DNA of 64,000 bases, from contig OX422200.1 in NCBI GenBank assembly GCA_949130485.1, positions 4,572,274-4,636,273 of the forward strand, in the 5' to 3' direction. Origin of the DNA: Agelas oroides (Eukaryota > Porifera > Demospongiae > Agelasida > Agelasidae). This document shows, one piece after another, positions 51,216 through 64,000 of the stretch (the stretch's first letter is position 1; every line of letters begins with the position of its first letter). The notes below the pieces were generated by a model. It was not told the origin of the DNA, did no database searches, and was given only the letters and a program-made list of their open reading frames with translations. Both the position numbers and the translations under genes were made by a program.

Positions 51216-53409
51216 ATGCGGTTTGTGAAGTTTCTGGCATTTTTCCTGTTTTTGGCTGGTGATATCAGCTCTAAACCTGCTTCTTTAGAAGCAAACCTAC
51301 CTGCTGTGGGCTGTGATGGCAGAGCAAACATCCTGTTGGCTCCCAAGGTTTTCCTCACTGATCAAGCACTCAGTGGCTGCAGCACTGTGGTGGCAGTTTT
51401 TGGCCTGCTGTCAGCGTTACTTGTTCAAAGATGTGTGTGCTCCATCTCAGGGCATCTGGAGGTAGTGTACAAGAGACTCGCTCTCGAAAGGTAGGCACAT
51501 GCAGGTAGCTAGCTAGGTATACCTGTTTAAAGGAAATATACAGACTACGGTCATTCAGTACAGGCATGTGTTAAAATTACCTCCTTATGAACATCCAAGT
51601 TTGGAGCTAAGAGTACAATCGTTCCGTTTTACACATGATTATATGATCAAAAAAATCTTATTTTATTTTTAGGAGGACTAGAACTTTCTTGTCTCGCATA
51701 CAATGCTTTGCACTTGGGTTATGTCTGACGCTGATACGGAGTCTGGAAACTATCTTTATGAAGCTACCCTTCATAAGGTAATGCAGTAACTGTAACTCAT
51801 GCTAAGAGTATGGAATATTTCATCAGCTTGTAACTCATGCATCTATACATGCTGCAGTGTTTGTTTACATAATCATGTGATGTACTTGTATATTATATGC
51901 ACATATTTCTTCTCCAGAATTTCTAGAATTAGACATAATAGCCCTGAAAAGGTCCGAGGCCAGTTACTGTAAGTGTAGTGTTTTTTTTTTTGGCATGTGA
52001 ATCGCGTAAATACAAGTAATTAACAAAAGTTTTCTAATCTTTCTTATCAAGAATGAAAACTGCATCAGCTACTGAACAAATTCAAACATCAAACCTCTTG
52101 GTAAAGTTACCGTCTGGAAAAACAGAACACCTTGAGATTATGTATGATGAGTCCACACTGTGTAAATTGCTGTTCAATGAAATTGAGAGTCTTACTGGAA
52201 TTCCTACTGGGCTACAGATGATTAGCTGTGGTTCTAGAATGATGCATCCGAGCATCCCAATTCACCAGTTTGGAATAGAAAACGAAAAGTGTCTTATCCT
52301 GTCTGTCAAAGGTATTGGAGGAGGTGGATCAGATTCTGATGAAGGTATAGTATTACACTATAACACTTTAACCAACAGTCATTTAATATTGTTATGTATA
52401 TGATGTAAAGGATGAGTGTGTTTCATGTGGAGAAGAGGCTCACATATACTGTGCTGAGTGTAATGGTTCTCGTTGCAATACCTGCAATGAACAATGGCAC
52501 AAACATCCAAACAGGAGACACCACAGCACTGAGGTATGTGTATGTCATATGTTTTTACATACTATATTTCTTGCGATAGCATCCCAAGTGCAGAAGTTGG
52601 AGAGTGCAATTGATATTGTATCATGCTTTGAAGCACTTTGTGGTGTTCGACCAATCAAGGAATTGATCCAAAAAATCCCTACTGTTTGTTCTTCTGAATA
52701 TGCTAACTTTATTGATAAGCAGTGTGATTGGACAATTGCTAAACATTGGGCACAGTGGTGGACAAGGTCATCACATTTAAAAATGCTATCAAAAGCATTT
52801 TCACCCATGGATAAGAAAACATGGTCAAAATGTCCTTCAACTACCAATGCAGTGGAAAGAAAAAACAAAGACTGTACAACTGAAAATCCACAGGGTATAA
52901 AATTGGCTATGAGTAAAGTTTACAAAATCGACAAAGTGGCATGTTTGAAGCACATTGCTGCACAACATAAAATTAGTCTCTCTTATCGCTCACGAACTGA
53001 GGAGGCTAGGAGAACAGCTGCAACTAAGAAACAAAAACAGAGATACAAGAACATATCTACTGATAAGTCTGCAAACTTTGGTCCTCCAGATCGATCCACA
53101 AACTTTAGCTGTGGCAAAGGATCTACATTAGGAAAAAGAGCAAGGGTTCCTCAAACCAGTGGTAGTCCTACTAAGAAGTCCAAAACAATTGCTATGGATA
53201 GGACTATTCAGTTCATCCCCAATCCTCATCCTGGTGTTCTCGGGAAAACAGTGTGAATGCAATTTGAGGTATCAGGAAAAAATGAATGGTTTGAAGGGAT
53301 CATTGCAACATATGATGGACTCAAGGGAAAATTTGGAATTTATTTCCCCTCAGATGGCGAAACTCATTTTGCATCCCTTGATGATGAAGATTTAGAAATT
53401 CTTGAATGA
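51216..53409 (+). CDS. Element-encoded protein: ubiquitin-like + B-box-like finger + transposase-like C-terminus + Tudor-like tail
   Basis: Exons 51216-51490, 51673-51777, 51918-51968 and 52052-52344 splice in consistent phase. They encode a hydrophobic N-terminus (MRFVKFLAFFLFLAGD), a basic linker, then a ubiquitin-like fold (LLVKLPSGKTEHLEIMYDES, SLTGIPTGLQMISCGSRMM, HQFGIENEKCLILSVKGIGG) ending in Gly-Gly as ubiquitin does. 52411-52533 encodes a Cys/His-rich B-box-like finger (CVSCGEEAHIYCAECNGSRC then NTCNEQWHKHP). From 52580 a long frame has KHWAQWWTRSSHLK and CPSTTNAVERKNKDC, which recalls the post-catalytic region of hAT/MULE-type transposases. After an in-frame TGA (53254-53256) comes NEWFEGIIATYDGLKGKFGI then YFPSDGE, Tudor-like. 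Phases clash at both edges of the finger exon and no catalytic core is seen, so this copy is probably internally deleted. Superfamily unknown. Confidence 0.7.
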
Positions 53410-55931: not shown

Positions 55932-58900
55932 CTAGGAGCAACACTGGTCCTGACTGTAACCCAGGTTTATATTTTCGTAACCTCCGCCGAGTGACTTCCC
56001 CCGCCACGTTAAATATAAAGTAAGGTTTCTTATCCTGAGGCTAGCCTCGTTCCCAGGCCTCCCCCGTTTTTTGTTCTTCGGTTTGCATTCAGTATAATAC
56101 GTATAGAACTGCAGTCTCTTTTCTACTTTATCCCCCAGAGCAATATATGCAAGTTTCTGGCGTGCTGCTGGATGCATTGTGGGAATATAATTCAGGGAAG
56201 CCTTCTGGTAGTGAAGTATCCCTGCATGCTGGTGACTGCAAGGAGATCCATCTCTTCCAGCTGGGCAGCTGCAAGTTCCAAGAGACATGTCTACCAAGTA
56301 TTCTGTGTCAACTTCTCGTTTACTGTGTACCAGGAAGAGATCATTTTGTAGTGGAGTGATGGCATCCTTGGTTATTTTCATAGCATTTTTGCCTAGAAAT
56401 TTCAAGGACACATAATGATCAACTCTATTGTGAGCTACACTAAGGAGCTTTCGTTGATAGTATAACTCCAGTGCTTCTGTGGCAAAGTGAAAAATCTGCA
56501 CCAAATTGAATGCTTTTACACGACTGAATATCAATTCTTTAAGGATTTTTATTCCAGCCTTGGAAACATTGTTGGTGTGGTTTCCTCTTATTGGAATACT
56601 GTGTCGGTATCAAAGTGCCCATTCTTTTCGATGTGGCCACAGTGCCTCGATATGTGCCAGAAAGTTGGGATATTTTGAAGCAATTTTGTGCTTTTTCAGT
56701 CCCCCATGACAGTCTGTCAGTTTTTCATCAGTGTCGGAATACACCATAGTTTTGACAAGTTCAATTAGAGGACGCCGATCATTGTTGTGGATCTTGTTTT
56801 TTGCCTCCCATAACCATGTCCATCTTCTCTGCAAGAAATGGAACACACACAAAGTAGTTGTGTGGCATGAGGCCACACAGATTTTAATGCATTCTTTTCT
56901 GTGGAGCTGTCATCAGTCATCACTATTGCTGGGCCTTTTTCTGCACCATTTCCAAAAAATGCTTTCTCTGGAAGAACAGTCTTCCAGAGATTCATTTCAG
57001 CCTGGATTGTTTCCTCCTTTTCATTGGAGGTTATAATCACCCCGACTGGAACTCCTCCTGAAGCCTGGCTTGTAGACAGTATGAAGACAGGTGTGTTGAA
57101 ACGATCAAGAGATGCTGTTGAATCGCAATAAAGAACCTCTGCAGATTGTACCACATTCTGATGAACTCTTGCCATTAAGGGAGTGCAGATCGCAATCACC
57201 AGAGACTGACAAGCTCTCTTTTACCTTTTACTTTTAGGTGGAGTTGGCTCATCTGTGTCACTCTCACTGTCAGAGTCGGGAAGATCAGCTTCTACTAATT
57301 TCAGTGCTGCTCTACCACCCTCTTTCCCCCATTTCTCATTGTAAGCCTCAAATTCACATTGCAATCTTTCAAGCAGTTGTTTGCCATCGTCTTCTCCCAT
57401 TTGTTCCTGTCTCCACTTCTTGTATAGCCGATTGACATCCCCTACATTTGGATTGACTGACCTGTCTGCAAGCTTTTGCTGCATTTCACTCTCGTCTTCC
57501 TCAAAGAAAAGTGTTTCAAAGAAATGGCGAGCAGTGGCTGCAGAGTGACCCATCGAAAACATTGAAACATTTTTTTCCTTGGTTCCTGCTGATATTGGGC
57601 GAAAGCTCAGGACATGGGCTGATTCCAAAGGATGATTGTGATTGAAGGTGAGTTGGACATACCCTTTGTGGTCATGTAAAACCCTGGCTGCAGGACCATT
57701 CTTTGATTGAGCCTTTGAGGGAATCTGTATTGTAATACACAGCTTGGATGGGCACTGTGTCTTCTTTTTTCGTAAATCTAACACAAACGTCTTTTCTTTT
57801 TGTTTTGTACACTTTGCTACTTGCTTGTCAGTTAGCTTTTTCTTGAAGTGCTGACAGTGCAAGTCAAGCTTGTAGCGAACCCTTTTCATCTTGGGATGAT
57901 AGGAGCGTGTCACACGATATGTACACTTGCTCTGCTCCATGAGTGTACTCACCCACTCTTTTGTGTCTTCTTCATTCTCTAGGTTCACACGAAGTTTTAC
58001 TTCAAAGGAGGACTCTGGAGCACCACAAAAGGTTTCCTTTGGGAGCTGTTGAAAGGCCTCAAGTAGGTATGAGTACTTGTCTGTTGGGGGTAACACGTCT
58101 TGTAACTCTTGGCATAGGTCATTCCACTTTTGAGGTTGCAAACCAGTTGGCTTCTCTGTTTCTGAAGTAGTTTCGACTTTGTGAGCAGAACCATCACCTT
58201 TTGTCACAGATTTGGGTGGTTCTTCTCTGGATCGTTTTCTTCCTTTTCTATACTTCAATGAAGTTGTTTGAAAATCATCCATATCATCGTTTAAGGTCTC
58301 AAAGGGTTTTGACTTTAAAGTGGAATGGTCTTTCTCTCTTGTCTTCTTGCATTCTGAGGCTTGAATAGAAGCTGTAGTAGAAGAACCATCCTGAATATTG
58401 AGGCAAGATTTTCTGAGCTCGTCTGCTATGCGTAGCCGGATCATTTGCATTGATTCTTGGCTAAAATCCATCTTCATGTCATAGAGTAGGCAGCACATGT
58501 ACTAAATGGTGAAAAGAAATGTTAAGAAATATGTGAGGAAGCATGAATTTGGTGGTTCCCTAGCACACATCTTCCCAATATACTCACCTCCAGCATGAAA
58601 ACTCCACAGTCACGTCCATTCTCTTGTTTAGGAAGATCCTACATACCGAAGTAACAATGTATAAAACCTGTACAGAGAAGTTTCTCCCTTTACACGACCT
58701 TTACCCATACTACGAAGTTATGTTATAGTTATAGCACGGTACCAGGGTTTTATGGCAGTAAACAGACCGAGTACAAGGGTGTAGCCCGAGGACGAGGTAG
58801 CCATAAATTCCCTGGCCACCTGTGCTATAACTATTATATATCCCACCTGATTGGTCCTTTGTTGTTATTACTATAAACACGTCTGTACATGTGCAAGTGT

Positions 58901-60180
58901 TTACAGTAACTTCAACATTTACACACAACTTTATATAGAAACTCTATGGCAGTGTAGTGTAATACATGGAGAGTGAATTATGTTCCCTTGTAGCACTCAT
59001 GCAGTTTAGCCTGAAGGTTCACTTGATAGTGTGGGTGAAGGGAAAATCCCTTTGTTGTACATTGTGGTTAATCAATGGTTGCAATTTTACCCATGTAGCT
59101 TGTGAATTCAATGCAGCTGTTTACATAACAACCACACTTACATCTTTGGTAGCAAATTTCCACCCAGTCCAATCAATTGCCATTCTTTGGCGTGATACTC
59201 TTTCTTTCTCCAGATAGAGCCTAGGTATAACAAAAGCTAGGTTTAATCAGGGTTTTTGGTGGAAGACTGTGTCTGTACATGCATGTGTACATAAGTATAT
59301 ATAGACCTAACACCATACCAATGGACCTAAGTCTTTGTCCCTCTTTGATTTCCTCCACCTTCCAATATTGACATAATTCACCTCCTCTGTTACAAATATT
59401 ACTGAGATCGTCATTTACCTCAATGCCTGGAAGTATTGGTGACCTGAGCCAGTGAGTCATAGTATAGCATCTCCTTCTTCCAGTTATTGATCACCTACAT
59501 AAAGGCCGGCGCATGTTTGTGCATGTGAACTTGGATGTATCCCTAACACAATCAACACTATTAAAATGTATAATAATTGTTATTGTATAATGTACCATTG
59601 CTGTCCAGTGAATGCGGGAGTCATTGATGATACAAATGATCAGTTCTGCTCCAAACAGATCTGCCTGTGAGAAGCCGAGAAGAAAGCAGAATGTGCTTAT
59701 GGAGACTATGTGATTGTTAGAATGAACATTTATACCTTTCGATTACAGTTCTCCGTGTTTTGTATTCCATTTTCAATCAGCTTCTTCATGAAAAGGCTAT
59801 CGAGGACCACCACATTCTGCAAACATGGACATCAAATTACCACACTACAACACTATTTAGAGGTCAAGTAATCGCAGATTTTCCTGACAGAATGTGTAGC
59901 TATTCAAATGTGTACCTTCATTTTCCCAGATGATATTAAGAGTTTCATGTATACTCTGATGTAATAAAACTACCGATAAATTTTTATTATGCAGGTCAGA
60001 ACTTATCTTCAGTTTTTTCTTGACAGTGCTGTTGATATTTACCTTGTCATTCAACAGGCGATTGTTTGTCAGTCGTGCAATATCATCATCACTGATACCC
60101 CATCCACCATCACATTCTTCTTCACACACAATGCTATCGTCACCGTCTTCAATAATGATTGGGTCACTTACACTTGCCAT
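55932..60180 (-). CDS. Ulp1/SENP-like protease fused by splicing to a MULE transposase with SWIM finger
   Basis: Minus-strand exons in order: 60180-60043 (MASVSDP, then ISDDDIARLTNNRLLNDK), 59816-59736 (VVVLDSLFMKKLIENG), 59664-59596 (ADLFGAELIICIINDSRIHW, catalytic His), 59494-59444 (WKKEMLYYDSLAQ, catalytic Asp), 58638-58588 (LPKQENGRDCGVFMLE, Gln and Cys) and 58501 onward (YMCCLLYDMKMDF). All are phase 0. About 30-40 residues between Asp and Gln, and about 15 after LLNDK, are not placed. The last exon continues into a MULE N-terminal domain (TYRVTRSYHPKMKRVRYKLD, FNHNHPLESAHV), the catalytic region (LYCDSTASLDRF, VMTDDSSTEKNALKS) and a SWIM finger (CSCPAGRDGSPCSHQH). An in-frame TAA (57223-57221), a frameshift near 56840 and a break near 56610-56534 disable the transposase. 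Its C-terminus (KKRGRPGNEAS) is encoded by the TAGCCTCG-type terminus at 56042. Confidence 0.82.
56042..56066. repeat. TAGCCTCG-type terminus of the Ulp1-MULE element
   Basis: TAGCCTCGTTCCCAGGCC begins at 56042 and points inward to the MULE gene, whose last codons read through it. It matches the ends of the 24070, 28073, 37372 and 49429 elements. The opposite end was not found with certainty; GGCCTGTGAACAGGCTTG at about 60267, just upstream of the gene's start, could be a decayed inverse. The 9-mer before the terminus (TCCTGAGGC) was not seen again. Confidence 0.8.
58719..58922. repeat. Interspersed repeat, copy 2
   Basis: Collinear partner of 46010-46222, with TATAGTTATAGCAC and GTGCTATAACTATTATAT forming the foldback. 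It lies in the intron between the Asp and Gln/Cys exons of the Ulp1-MULE gene. Confidence 0.85.
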
Positions 60181-60467
60181 GCCAGTCTGAAATTTTCATG
60201 TGAAGGTCATTAGGTATGAGTAAACAGTAGGTATACCTCGTACAAGGAGATAAATAACCTACAGTCGGCCTGTGAACAGGCTTGTCTTCAATACAAATTC
60301 CCAGCTGTCGACTTCAAGTTTCGCGCCAAGTTCGAGGGAGAAACACGCGGTATAAAACGGGTTAATGATAATACTGTTGCCTAGCAACAAAGTCTGCGCA
60401 TGCCCAACTTTCACCCTGAAAAGAGTCTAAGTTTTGAAACCTTGTCCAAAAAAAAAATTCGCCCTCC

Positions 60468-63388
60468 TCGGAGGATTTATCAGGACTTCCCGCACATAAA
60501 CAGTCTTGCATCAACCTCACAGGGCGTCCACAGCGGTGGAAACTGCTTTCTCGATCTCCTCTGGCACTTAAAGATGCCTGCACCTGCTTCACGGCACCTC
60601 CTAGGAGGTTAAAACGGCTTTGTCAGGTCTTTCCCGCACATAAACAGGCTTGCACGAGCCTCACAGTATCTCCACAGTGGTGAAAACAGCTTTCTCGATC
60701 TTCCCTGGCAATTAAACAGGCCTGCACGTGCTTCACAGTACCTCCTCGGAAGTTAAAACGGAGTTATCAGGTCTTTCCCGCACATAAACAGGGTTACACC
60801 AACCTCACAGGGACTCCACAGTGGTGAAAACTGCTTTCCCGATCTTCTCTGTAACTTAAACCGGCCTCCATGTGCTTCACAGCACCTCCTCGGAGGTTAA
60901 AACGGCATTATAGTCATATCTTTCCCCCACATAAACAGGCTTGCACGAGCCTCACAGTATCTCCACAGTGGTGAAAACTGCTTTCTCGATCTTCCCTGGC
61001 ACTTAAACAGGACTCCACGTGCTTCACAGAAGCTACTCGGAGGTTAAAACGGCTTTGTCAGGTATTTCCCACACAAACAGGCTTGCACCCACCTCACATT
61101 ACCTCCAAAGTGGTGAAAACTGCTTTCTCGATCTGCCCTGGCACTTAAACCGGCCTGCACGTGCTTCAAAACACCTGCTCGGAGGTTTTATCAGGACTTC
61201 CCGCACATAAACAGGCATGCATCAACCTCACAGGGCGTCCACAGCGGTGGAAACTGCTTTCACGATCTTCTCTGGCACTTAAACAAGCCTGCACCTGCTT
61301 CACAGCACCTACTTGGAGGTTAAAACGGTGTTATCAGGCCTTTCCCTCACATAAACAGGCTTGCACCAACCTCACAGCGCCTCCACAGCGGTGGAAACTG
61401 CTTTCTCGATCTTCTCTGGCACTTACACTGGCCTCCACGTGCTTCACAGCACTTCCTCGGAGGTTAAAACGGGTCTTTCCCTCACATAAAAACGCTTGCA
61501 CGAGACTCACAGTCCCTCCACAGTGGTGAAAACTGCTTTCTCGATACTCCCTGGCTCTTAAACAGGCCTCCATGTGCTTCACAATACCTGATCGGATGTT
61601 AAAACGGCTTTGTCAGGTCTTTCCCGCATATAAACAGGCTTGCCTCACAAGACCTCCACAGTGGAGAAAACTGCTTTCTCGATCTTCCCTGGCACATTAA
61701 CAGGCCTGCACGTGCTTCACAGCACCTCCTCGGAGGTTTTATCAGTACTTCCTGCACATAAACAGGCTTGCATCAACATCACAGGGCGTCCACAGCGGTG
61801 GAAACTGCTTTCTCGATCTCCTCTGGCACTTGAACAGGACTACACGTGCTTAAAAGCACCTCCTCGGAGGTTAAAACGGCGTTATCAGGTCTTTCCGGCA
61901 CATAAACAGGCTTGGACCAACCTCACAGTATCTCCACAGCGGTGAAAACTGCTTTCTCGATCTTCTCTGATACTTAAACAGGACTGCACGTGCTTCACAG
62001 CACCTCCTCGGAGGTTTTATCAGGACTTCCCGCACATAAACAGGCTTGCATCAACCTCACAGGGCGTCCACAGCGGTGGAAACTGCTTTCTCGATCTTCT
62101 CTGGCACTTAAACAGGCCTGCACGTACTTCACAGTACCTCCTCGGAAGTTAAAACGGCGTTATCAGGTCTTTCCCGCACATAAACAGGCTTGTACCAACC
62201 TCACAGGGCCTCCACAGGGGTGAAAACTGCTTTCTCGATCTTCTCTAGTACTTAAACAGGACTGCACGTGCTTCAAATCACCTCCTCGGAGGTTAAAACG
62301 GCGTTATCAGATCTTTCCCGCACATAAGCAGGCTTGCACCAACCTCACAGGGCCTCCACAGCGGTGAAAACTGCTTTCTGGATATGCTCAATACTTACAC
62401 AGGCATCCACGTGCTTCACAGCACCTCCTCGGTGGTTAAAACTGCATCATGTCCTTACCGCACATAGACAGGCTTGCACGAGACTCACAGGACCACCTCA
62501 GTTGTGAAAACTTCTTTGTCGATCTTCCCTGGCACTTAAACAGGCCTGCACGTGCTTCACAGCACCTCCTGGGAGGTGAAAACTGCTTTGTCAGGTCTTT
62601 CCCGCACATAAACAGGCTTGCACGAGCCTCACAGGACCTCAACAGTGGTGAAAACTGCTTTCTCAATCTTCCCTAGCTCTTAAACAGTCCTGCACGTGCT
62701 TCACAGTACCTCCTGGGAGGTTAAAACAGTTTTATCAGGTTTTCCCGTACATAAACAGGCGTTCACGAGCCTCACAAGACCTACACAGTGGAGAAAACTG
62801 CTTTCTCGCTCTTCCCTGGGGCTTAAACAGGCCTGCGCGTGCTACAACGTACCTCCTCGGAGGTGAAAACTGCTTTATCAGGACTTCCCGCACATAAACA
62901 GGCTTGCATCAACCTCACAGGGCCACCACAGCGGTGAAAACTGCTTTGTCGATATGCTCTGGCACTTACACTGGCCTCCACGTGCTTCACAGCACTTCCT
63001 CGGAGGTTAAAACGGCGTTATCAAGTCTTTCCCTCACATAAACAGGCTTACACCAACCACACAGGGCTTCCACAGTGGTGAAAACTGCTTTCCCGATCTT
63101 CTCTGGCACTTAAACAAGCCTCCATGTGCTTCAAAGCACCTCCTCGGAGGTTAAAACGGCGTTATCAGGTCTTCGCCGCACATAAACAGGCTTGCACCAA
63201 CCTCACAGGGCCACCACAGCGGTGAAAACTGCTTTGTCGATATGCTCTGGCACTTACACTGGCCTCCACGTGCTTCACAGCACTTCCTCGGAGGTTAAAA
63301 CGGGTCTTTCCCTCACATAAACAGGCTTGCACGAGACTCACAGTGCGTCCACAGTGGTGAAAACTGCTTTCTCGATATTCCCTGGCTC
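60468..63388. repeat. Satellite array, ~20 copies of a 144-bp dimer of 72-bp monomers
   Basis: The 144-bp period is seen from TTCCCGCACA at 60631 and 60775. Each unit has two related halves: A (CTCACAG..CCTCCACAG.GGTGAAAACTGCTTTCTCGATC) and B (CTTCACAG.ACCTCCTCGGAGGTTAAAACGG.GTTATCAGG). Both begin with a CTTGCAC/CCTGCAC step and end in TAAACAGG. A and B alternate through the array. Scattered open frames on both strands are repeat noise. Confidence 0.95.
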
Positions 63389-64000
63389 TTAATGGGAGAA
63401 CAAAAGAGTCCTAAAAACAGCCATTTAATGATATTCATGAGAGCTCTGCTGACAGATGGAATCAGAGTGTGTCAAGTAAAAGCTTACCACACAGAATTGA
63501 CCACTGCTTGTCCTTGGATGGCTCTTATAGAGATTTACGACTCCGAAACACACTGGACCTCAACCTTAGACATTGCTAATAACATTCACGACCCTATAAT
63601 GATACTCATGATCTACCTAACCAGGGTTGTGTCCCACAAGGGGTTAGACGAATTCTAAGGGCTTGATTCAATTTTAGCTTGCCTGCTACTTCTGAACTTC
63701 TGGCCTCATATTCTAGCCCCTTTACCCACCATTAGCCCTTTAAATGCTAAATTAATTCCCCTAAAGGTCTTGTGTAGACTAGTCCCACCTTCTTTCACCT
63801 GCATTTCCACTTCTGCCAGGAGTTAGCCCGAGAAACTTGATCCACAGCTTGCTTCAGAAGTTTTTTGCAGGTTCATGACCCTGACCACACCCACTCATTA
63901 CCGAGCGTTCAATAGTCTGGGCCCTCCGACCAGGGAACGCTCCTCCAAACTGAAAGCTGCCTAAAATAAACAGAAATGGAGTCCCTACAAGGTGAAAGGA
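63389..64000. other. Window end, nothing identified
   Basis: An 88-codon plus-strand frame starts ATGGGAGAACAAAAG at 63392, directly after the satellite, but it shows no recognisable domain and no SLCO similarity. No other feature is seen. Confidence 0.5.

What the first reader, a model, noticed from the sequence alone, without database searches (positions are those of the whole stretch)
55932..60180. Ulp1/SENP-like protease spliced in frame to a MULE transposase
The six placed exons upstream of and including the fusion junction are all phase 0. They show His (HW), Asp (YYDS), Gln (PKQ) and Cys (DCG) of a C48 protease, and the last exon runs straight from the end of the protease fold into a MULE N-terminal domain, catalytic region and SWIM finger. 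Plant Kaonashi/CUMULE elements carry Ulp1-like genes (established), but a single spliced protease-transposase polypeptide in an animal MULE is unusual to my knowledge. A deSUMOylating activity joined to a transposase could shield it from SUMO-based silencing (inference).
Basis: partly seen in the sequence, partly recalled or inferred. Interest (0 to 1): 0.88.

Follow-up and report, generated by a model that had tools for sequence, protein, structure and literature searches.

The report
SUMO-protease-like domain fused to jumping-gene transposase
A broken jumping gene in this animal genome once encoded one protein with a SUMO-protease-like domain joined to its transposase, and better-preserved copies and relatives show that the joining is real, old and shared by several families of such elements.

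Summary
The fusion is real; the window copy is dead. The joined window exons match Peptidase_C48 (E 1.4e-22; nearest solved protein SENP1) and lead in frame into a Mutator-like (MULE) transposase. The copy has two stops, a frameshift, Lys in place of the catalytic Glu, and no 3' end. In that family 7 of 7 fetched copies carry all nine exons in order, some damaged. L014 has both TIRs, a 9-bp target duplication and one spliced frame of 889 codons with the C48 His/Asp/Cys and MULE Asp/Asp/Glu. An upstream C48-type domain was found in 18 of 26 own-genome MULE loci examined, not a random sample. It comes in two types: spliced SENP-like, and a divergent single-ORF type whose modelled fold matches SENP/Ulp1 structures. 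Ulp1 domains in animal MULEs (hydra, lancelet) were noted in 2010, so I call this a new variant of a known kind: N-terminal, SENP-type, in one chain with the transposase. Local deSUMOylation by the transposase is the likeliest function, but inferred. No RNA was available.

The parts
60463..60471 (+). CCTCCTCGG, the 9-bp site next to the 5' end; the same 9-mer flanks copy L014 on both sides
   Evidence: the second copy of the duplication is lost in the window
60416..60462 (-). 5' terminal inverted repeat (GCGAATTTTTTTTTTGG...), about 47 nt alignable to the L014 end
   Evidence: one search finds this one exact core match in the window
60043..60180 (-). exon 1, start ATG to LLNDK, phase 0
   Evidence: same border in L013/L014
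   Evidence: inference from comparison
59736..59816 (-). exon 2, phase 0
59596..59664 (-). exon 3, holds the C48 His (IHWTAM), phase 0
59444..59494 (-). exon 4, holds the C48 Asp (YYDS); a longer form to 59419 fits the sister family better but meets a stop in this copy
58588..58638 (-). exon 6, holds the C48 Gln and Cys (DLPKQENGRDCGVFMLE)
57221..58501 (-). last exon up to the first stop: end of the C48 fold, linker, MULE N-terminal region with conserved Cys/His
56846..57220 (-). MULE catalytic region with the two Asp (CDST, TDDS)
   Evidence: Pfam MULE 31.7 bits, cut-off 27.6
56610..56861 (-). next stretch, in another frame, ending in a stop (56612-56610)
56559..56561 (-). codon of the third catalytic residue: Lys, where 14 of 14 aligned relatives have Glu
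56232..56300 (-). SWIM-like finger, below Pfam's cut-off
56085..56609 (-). last recognisable part of the transposase; a dispersed repeat (56042-56100, 94.9% to L009 862-919) overlaps its end

Best explanation
It is a decayed copy of a Mutator-like (MULE) cut-and-paste transposon. In better copies one spliced gene is predicted to encode, in a single chain, an N-terminal SENP/Ulp1-type C48 cysteine protease, a linker, a Cys/His-rich N-terminal region, a DDE transposase and a SWIM-like finger. Shown by sequence: the architecture, its place inside TIR-bounded elements with 9-bp target duplications, and its conservation across families. Inferred: the transposase part holds the protease at the element's ends. 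There it removes SUMO (or another ubiquitin-like protein) from the transposase or from host chromatin and repair factors, so that the element escapes SUMO-dependent repression or has its breaks repaired. My odds: about 0.95 for the architecture, 0.35 for the local deSUMOylation role; the figure below is for the whole statement, with the marked inference taken as an inference.
For: Window exons: C48 E 1.4e-22, SENP1 E 2.7e-19. Sister family: L013 protease matches SENP5 over residues 21-215 of 217 (E 7.4e-24) and C48 (E 1.3e-23); all nine exons in order in 7 of 7 fetched copies. L014: one spliced frame of 889 codons with HW at 107, YYDS at 122, DCG at 173, CDST at 637, DDS at 708, NNYAE at 822. 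L014 and L015 have both TIRs and 9-bp duplications. Protease and transposase diverged alike between window and L013: 38% (78 of 203) and 37%. 21 of 129 relatives carry the last C48 helix motif in their first 70 residues, against 6 matches in 81,000 other residues. P0045 carries PF02902 and PF10551. L031 of the same genome has one 1233-aa open frame with both parts; a model of its N-terminal 357 residues (pLDDT 80) matches SENP5 at E 6.2e-08, and the first 32 PDB matches are all SENP, Ulp1-type or NEDP1 chains. Pooled pN/pS of the protease exons over 21 pairs of seven copies is 0.46.
Against: No RNA or activity data. No copy with the whole chain intact was seen: L014 breaks after the catalytic Glu, L013 has two stops in the last exon, and the end of L031 differs from its relatives (my reading). 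The pN/pS rests on few changes and includes decay after insertion. A search for fused proteins by the protease part alone found none (172 candidates). In 8 of 26 examined MULE loci no upstream protease was seen. Pfam does not recognise the divergent domain in L031. Nothing here shows that the protease acts on SUMO.
Confidence: 0.6

Rival explanations
1. One gene, two products: the protease and the transposase are made separately, by alternative promoters, splicing or an internal start, so no fused protein acts in the cell.
For: In 18 of the 21 motif-bearing relatives the predicted protein starts a few residues before the last C48 helix (motif at position 4 or 5), so a Met lies there; the better copies have up to nine exons that could be spliced otherwise.
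Against: Such a Met is also found in SENP1 at that place (QHMPYF). A separate transposase would not need to keep the C48 helix motif. The divergent branch joins both parts in one uninterrupted frame without an intron between.
Confidence: 0.2
2. The fused protease serves another end: it cuts the fusion chain itself, or acts on ubiquitin, NEDD8 or another modifier.
For: The fold search also lists NEDP1 and, lower down, deubiquitinating CE-clan proteases and viral maturation proteases. CE-clan enzymes differ in substrate (established knowledge).
Against: The spliced type is closest to SENP1 and SENP5, SUMO proteases. No cleavage motif was sought.
Confidence: 0.13
3. Passenger: the protease exons were captured from a host gene and are carried without function.
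For: MULEs capture host gene pieces, and in grapevine the authors treat ULP as repeatedly transduplicated (PMC2528002, section read).
Against: Active-site residues and exon borders are kept in families whose proteases are 38% identical; several families share it.
Confidence: 0.05
4. Chance juxtaposition or assembly artefact in the window.
For: Judged from the window alone it could be a MULE beside a SENP pseudogene.
Against: The same order lies inside TIR-bounded copies elsewhere.
Confidence: 0.01

Closest known systems
Ulp1-bearing Mutator (MuDR) elements of hydra and lancelet (Repbase reports cited in PMC2836005)
   Same: Animal MULEs with a Ulp1 domain; the 2010 paper aligns Ulp1 and PHD of Ginger1 and Mutator transposases (legend and Discussion).
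   Different: The text does not say where the domain lies; I did not see the Repbase entries. Here it is N-terminal, split by introns in the spliced type, and no PHD was seen. Locus L024 of this genome (MULE, then C48 at 21.5 bits against a cut-off of 20.7, then a PHD-like match below cut-off) looks more like that type.
Ginger1 transposons
   Same: Animal DNA transposons whose transposase chain carries Ulp1 or OTU (PMC2836005).
   Different: Gypsy-integrase-type transposase and a C-terminal protease; here a MULE with an N-terminal one.
Plant ULP-bearing MULEs (Kaonashi; melon, rice, grapevine)
   Same: MULE plus Ulp1-like coding sequence (PMC2528002, passages and section; PMC13317346, passages).
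   Different: In Kaonashi the ULP lies in reverse orientation to the transposase, in grapevine downstream of it in either orientation; here it is upstream, same strand, same frame.
CACTA-ULP elements of plants
   Same: Rice proteins with both Tnp2 and ULP1 domains are reported (PMC2528002, section).
   Different: Another transposase superfamily.
SENP1/SENP2/SENP5 (Peptidase C48)
   Same: Catalytic residues and whole-domain match.
   Different: The host enzymes carry no transposase (recalled).
ZSWIM1/ZSWIM3-type host proteins
   Same: RNase H-like region matches PF21056.
   Different: No C48 domain is known to me there (recalled); this is a TIR-ended element.

Membership tests
Peptidase C48 (Ulp1/SENP) | Pfam PF02902 above the curated cut-off | tested here: met
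   Window joined exons 81.1 bits, L013 84.4 bits, cut-off 20.7. For the divergent type not met: P0058 18.4 bits, P0063, P0067 and L031 no listed match.
Peptidase C48 (Ulp1/SENP) | His-Asp-Gln-Cys | tested here: met
   HW, YYDS, PKQ, DCG in the window; HW, YYDS, PCQ, DCG in L013/L014; HW, GDS, Q, CG in P0063, P0067, L031.
Peptidase C48 (Ulp1/SENP) | CE-clan fold | tested here: met
   Only for the divergent type: L031 N-terminal model against PDB. The spliced proteases were not modelled.
Peptidase C48 (Ulp1/SENP) | cleaves SUMO | not testable with these tools
   Needs an assay.
Mutator-like elements (MULE) | MULE transposase domain above the cut-off | tested here: met
   Window 31.7 bits, cut-off 27.6; L014 31.4; L031 20.1, below.
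Mutator-like elements (MULE) | DDE triad | tested here: not met
   Not met in the window copy (Glu to Lys); met in 14 of 14 aligned relatives and in L014.
Mutator-like elements (MULE) | TIRs and a target duplication of about 9 bp | tested here: inconclusive
   Window: 5' TIR only. L014 and L015: both TIRs, 9-bp duplications. L013: 5' TIR found, 3' TIR not found by exact 9-mer in L013 or L029.
Kaonashi-type plant MULE | ULP in reverse orientation to the transposase gene (PMC2528002) | tested here: not met
   Same strand, upstream, in frame.
Ginger1 | Gypsy-integrase-like transposase with a C-terminal Ulp1 or OTU (PMC2836005) | tested here: not met
   MULE domain, N-terminal protease.
Rehavkus | PHD finger; minisatellite before the 3' TIR (PMC6446971 passage) | tested here: not met
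   No PHD in scans of the window, of nine relatives or of the L014 ORF; in L014 the satellite lies outside the TIRs and duplication. The window's own 3' end is lost.

The most novel reading that the evidence does not exclude
A long-lived lineage of animal MULEs has an obligate SUMO-protease transposase: its active members carry an N-terminal SENP-like domain in the same chain, and transposition or escape from SUMO-dependent silencing needs its activity at the element's ends.
Probability: 0.3. Interest if true: 0.75.

Novelty: new variant of a known kind. Interest (0 to 1): 0.52.

Why it matters
Ulp1-like domains turn up in plant MULEs and CACTA elements and in animal Ginger1 and Mutator elements, and a 2026 review still calls the function of the plant case unknown (PMC13317346, passages). 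Here the protease is predicted to be part of the transposase chain, in several families, in a spliced and a single-ORF form. One construct with and without the catalytic Cys could therefore test whether deSUMOylation drives transposition, repair or anti-silencing. It also looks like a case of host SENP-type exons, introns included, becoming part of a mobile element (origin from a host SENP is inferred, not tested).

Tried and rejected
Rejected: chance or assembly artefact (other copies). The TAA at 57223-57221 lying in an intron (relatives run on in frame across that place). Host domestication of the window copy (broken). The small ORF at 63299-63658 with an HW motif as a second protease (no Pfam match).

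Led nowhere: scans of viral contigs and genome contigs for relatives (214 and 93 stretches matched a pattern, no relative by tblastn); plasmids (no match); a search for fused proteins by the protease part alone (172 candidates, none at E 0.001); a structure of full-length P0063 (pLDDT 42, not used further); the genome-wide PF02902 search (20 matches), which sees mostly unspliced C48 and says little about spliced ones. Seven paper searches listed no paper whose title or shown abstract describes an N-terminal SENP-MULE fusion in an animal; they cover one open library only, and the Repbase reports were not seen.

Sampling: the 26 loci are not random. L009-L028 are 20 of the 119 MULE hits, picked mostly for long frames and weak domain scores; L031-L036 are 6 places among the 57 matches. 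L009 and L010 are identical over 7.5 kb. The window copy and the short loci L001-L008 are outside the 26. One search scanned 12 of the 20. For L032 only the active-site exon was found (score 57).
Full report
What was checked. The window is G000:C18:4572274-4636273 of an unnamed 259-Mb assembly in 141 contigs. It is an animal, probably a sponge: inferred because one relative is an Amphimedon queenslandica protein (P0121), not tested further. The joined exons, with exon 5 added, match Peptidase_C48 at E 1.4e-22; the best solved relatives are SENP1 chains (E 2.7e-19). The SENP1 alignment shows a gap of about ten residues after YYDS. A further short exon (59954-59916) lies between exons 1 and 2. 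Neither joins cleanly in frame in this copy.

The window copy is dead. Relatives (40, 113) run on in frame where the window has TAA at 57223-57221 (14 aligned). tblastn of the 40 relatives shows the frame switch near 56.85 kb and matches that stop near 56079-56106 in most rows, one row going on to 55947; none reaches the conserved C-terminal tail. A second stop lies at 56612-56610. The Glu of the DDE triad, invariant in 14 of 14 aligned relatives, is Lys. The 5' TIR is kept at 60462 and abuts a satellite of about 144 bp. No 3' TIR was found: a scan with up to 2 mismatches gives the 5' end and one other match, no more than chance.

The fusion in other copies. Of 119 PF10551 hits in the genome I fetched 20 with about 7 kb upstream. 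The window's active-site exon scores 59-66 upstream on the MULE strand in 11 of 20 and 24-30 in the other 9; the opposite strand gives at most 31 in 20 of 20. With a SENP1 peptide the limits are 45-67, at most 33, and at most 35. One of the nine, L022, carries a divergent protease in a 524-aa ORF, recognised by the N-termini of P0063 and P0067 (best E 2.5e-44). Six more loci all carried one: L032 (active-site exon only), L031, and L033-L036 with all nine exons each. That makes 18 of 26, not randomly chosen. None was seen upstream of L016-L020, L023, L024 and L028; L024 has a C48 plus PHD-like ORF downstream.

The sister family. Seven copies (L013, L014, L015, L033-L036) hold nine exons in the same order. 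Splice borders were read in L013 and L014 and by eye in L015. Exon ends fall where the window's do (after LNDK, RK, HWTxM, LE), and the exon 4/5 junction is phase 2. Some copies are damaged: an insertion in exon 2 of L015, one stop each in L035 and L036, unaligned codons in L033, L034 and L036. The joined L013 protease matches SENP5 over nearly its whole length (E 7.4e-24). In L014 the spliced frame runs 889 codons from the ATG to a stop at L014 7706 and holds HW at 107, YYDS at 122, DCG at 173, CDST at 637, DDS at 708 and NNYAE at 822; what follows the Glu, SWIM included, is damaged. L013 has two stops in its last exon. L014 and L015 end in GCGAATTTT...AAAATTCGC and are flanked by CCTCCTCGG and CCGCGCCGT, 9 bp each; for L013 the 3' TIR was not found by exact match. 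The exact TIR pattern finds 9 sites in the genome and 0 for the reversed control. Over 21 pairs of the seven copies the pooled pN/pS of the protease exons is 0.46; with few changes and decay after insertion included, that is only a hint of constraint.

Beyond this family. 21 of 129 relatives have the motif of the last C48 helix in their first 70 residues, against 6 matches in 81,000 other residues. P0045 has both PF02902 and PF10551. P0058, P0063 and P0067 join a divergent H-D-Q-C domain to the MULE in one frame. Own-genome L031 does the same in one open frame of 1233 aa. Pfam does not recognise that domain in L031, but a model of 357 N-terminal residues from an 11-row alignment (pLDDT 80) matches SENP5, SENP2, Ulp1 and NEDP1; the first 32 PDB matches are SENP, Ulp1-type or NEDP1 chains, best E 6.2e-08, 14% identity, TM-score 0.71 by the target's length and 0.40 by the query's. 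A viral library lists Ulp1-like proteases of large DNA viruses first. A tree of 29 transposase cores (194 columns; L016, L019 and L024 dropped as too short) puts the window, L013-L015, L021, L012, L022 and the fused P proteins in one group (97/81). The L009 and L026 families sit on a long branch outside it, so one or two origins are possible; such long branches make that part doubtful.

Target site. In L014 the satellite lies on both sides, outside the TIRs. The window copy abuts the same 9-mer of the same satellite, with the gene in the opposite orientation. This suggests a preference for that site; two cases only.

Function. That the protease works on SUMO, and at the element, is inference from family membership. 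The 2010 proposal that such domains help repair during transposition (PMC2836005, Discussion read) fits equally well.

Known or new. Ulp1 in animal Mutator elements is on record (hydra, lancelet), as are ULP-bearing plant MULEs with the ULP downstream or reversed, and rice CACTA proteins with Tnp2 and ULP1 (section read). The arthropod MULE survey (PMC13359780) and the eukaryote-wide MULE study (PMC6446971) hold no 'ulp', 'protease' or 'peptidase' in their main texts (term counts); I saw passages of both. I therefore call this a new variant of a known kind.

Noticed in passing
window 60463-63392 and L014 1-4032, 8542-9901: A satellite of about 144 bp; the window MULE and L014 both sit at the same 9-mer (CCTCCTCGG) of it, in opposite gene orientation, which suggests target preference.
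   Followed up: partly
window 52038-53256 (+): Two overlapping ORFs: a ubiquitin-like domain (polyubiquitin E 3e-06) followed by a B-box-like match below Pfam's cut-off. A ubiquitin-like gene next to a SUMO-protease MULE may be coincidence.
   Followed up: partly
L024 1072-1809 (-): C48 (21.5 bits, just above cut-off) plus a PHD-like match downstream of a MULE ORF, the other order; possibly the hydra/lancelet type.
   Followed up: no
L031 1076-4777 (-): One open frame of 1233 aa joining a divergent SENP-fold domain to a MULE transposase without an intron.
   Followed up: partly
L009, L011, L025, L026, L027 last exons: Tandem repeats within or next to the long last-exon frames (many offset self-matches between copies): the linker between protease and transposase may vary by repeat number.
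   Followed up: no
window 58719-58840: Inverted repeat with 19-nt arms inside the intron before exon 6, like a small inserted MITE.
   Followed up: no
G000 C1:27936041, C9:5119678, C13:9005155, C22:6679912: Four equal-scoring C48 matches in 540-aa open frames, perhaps another repeat family with a C48 protease.
   Followed up: no
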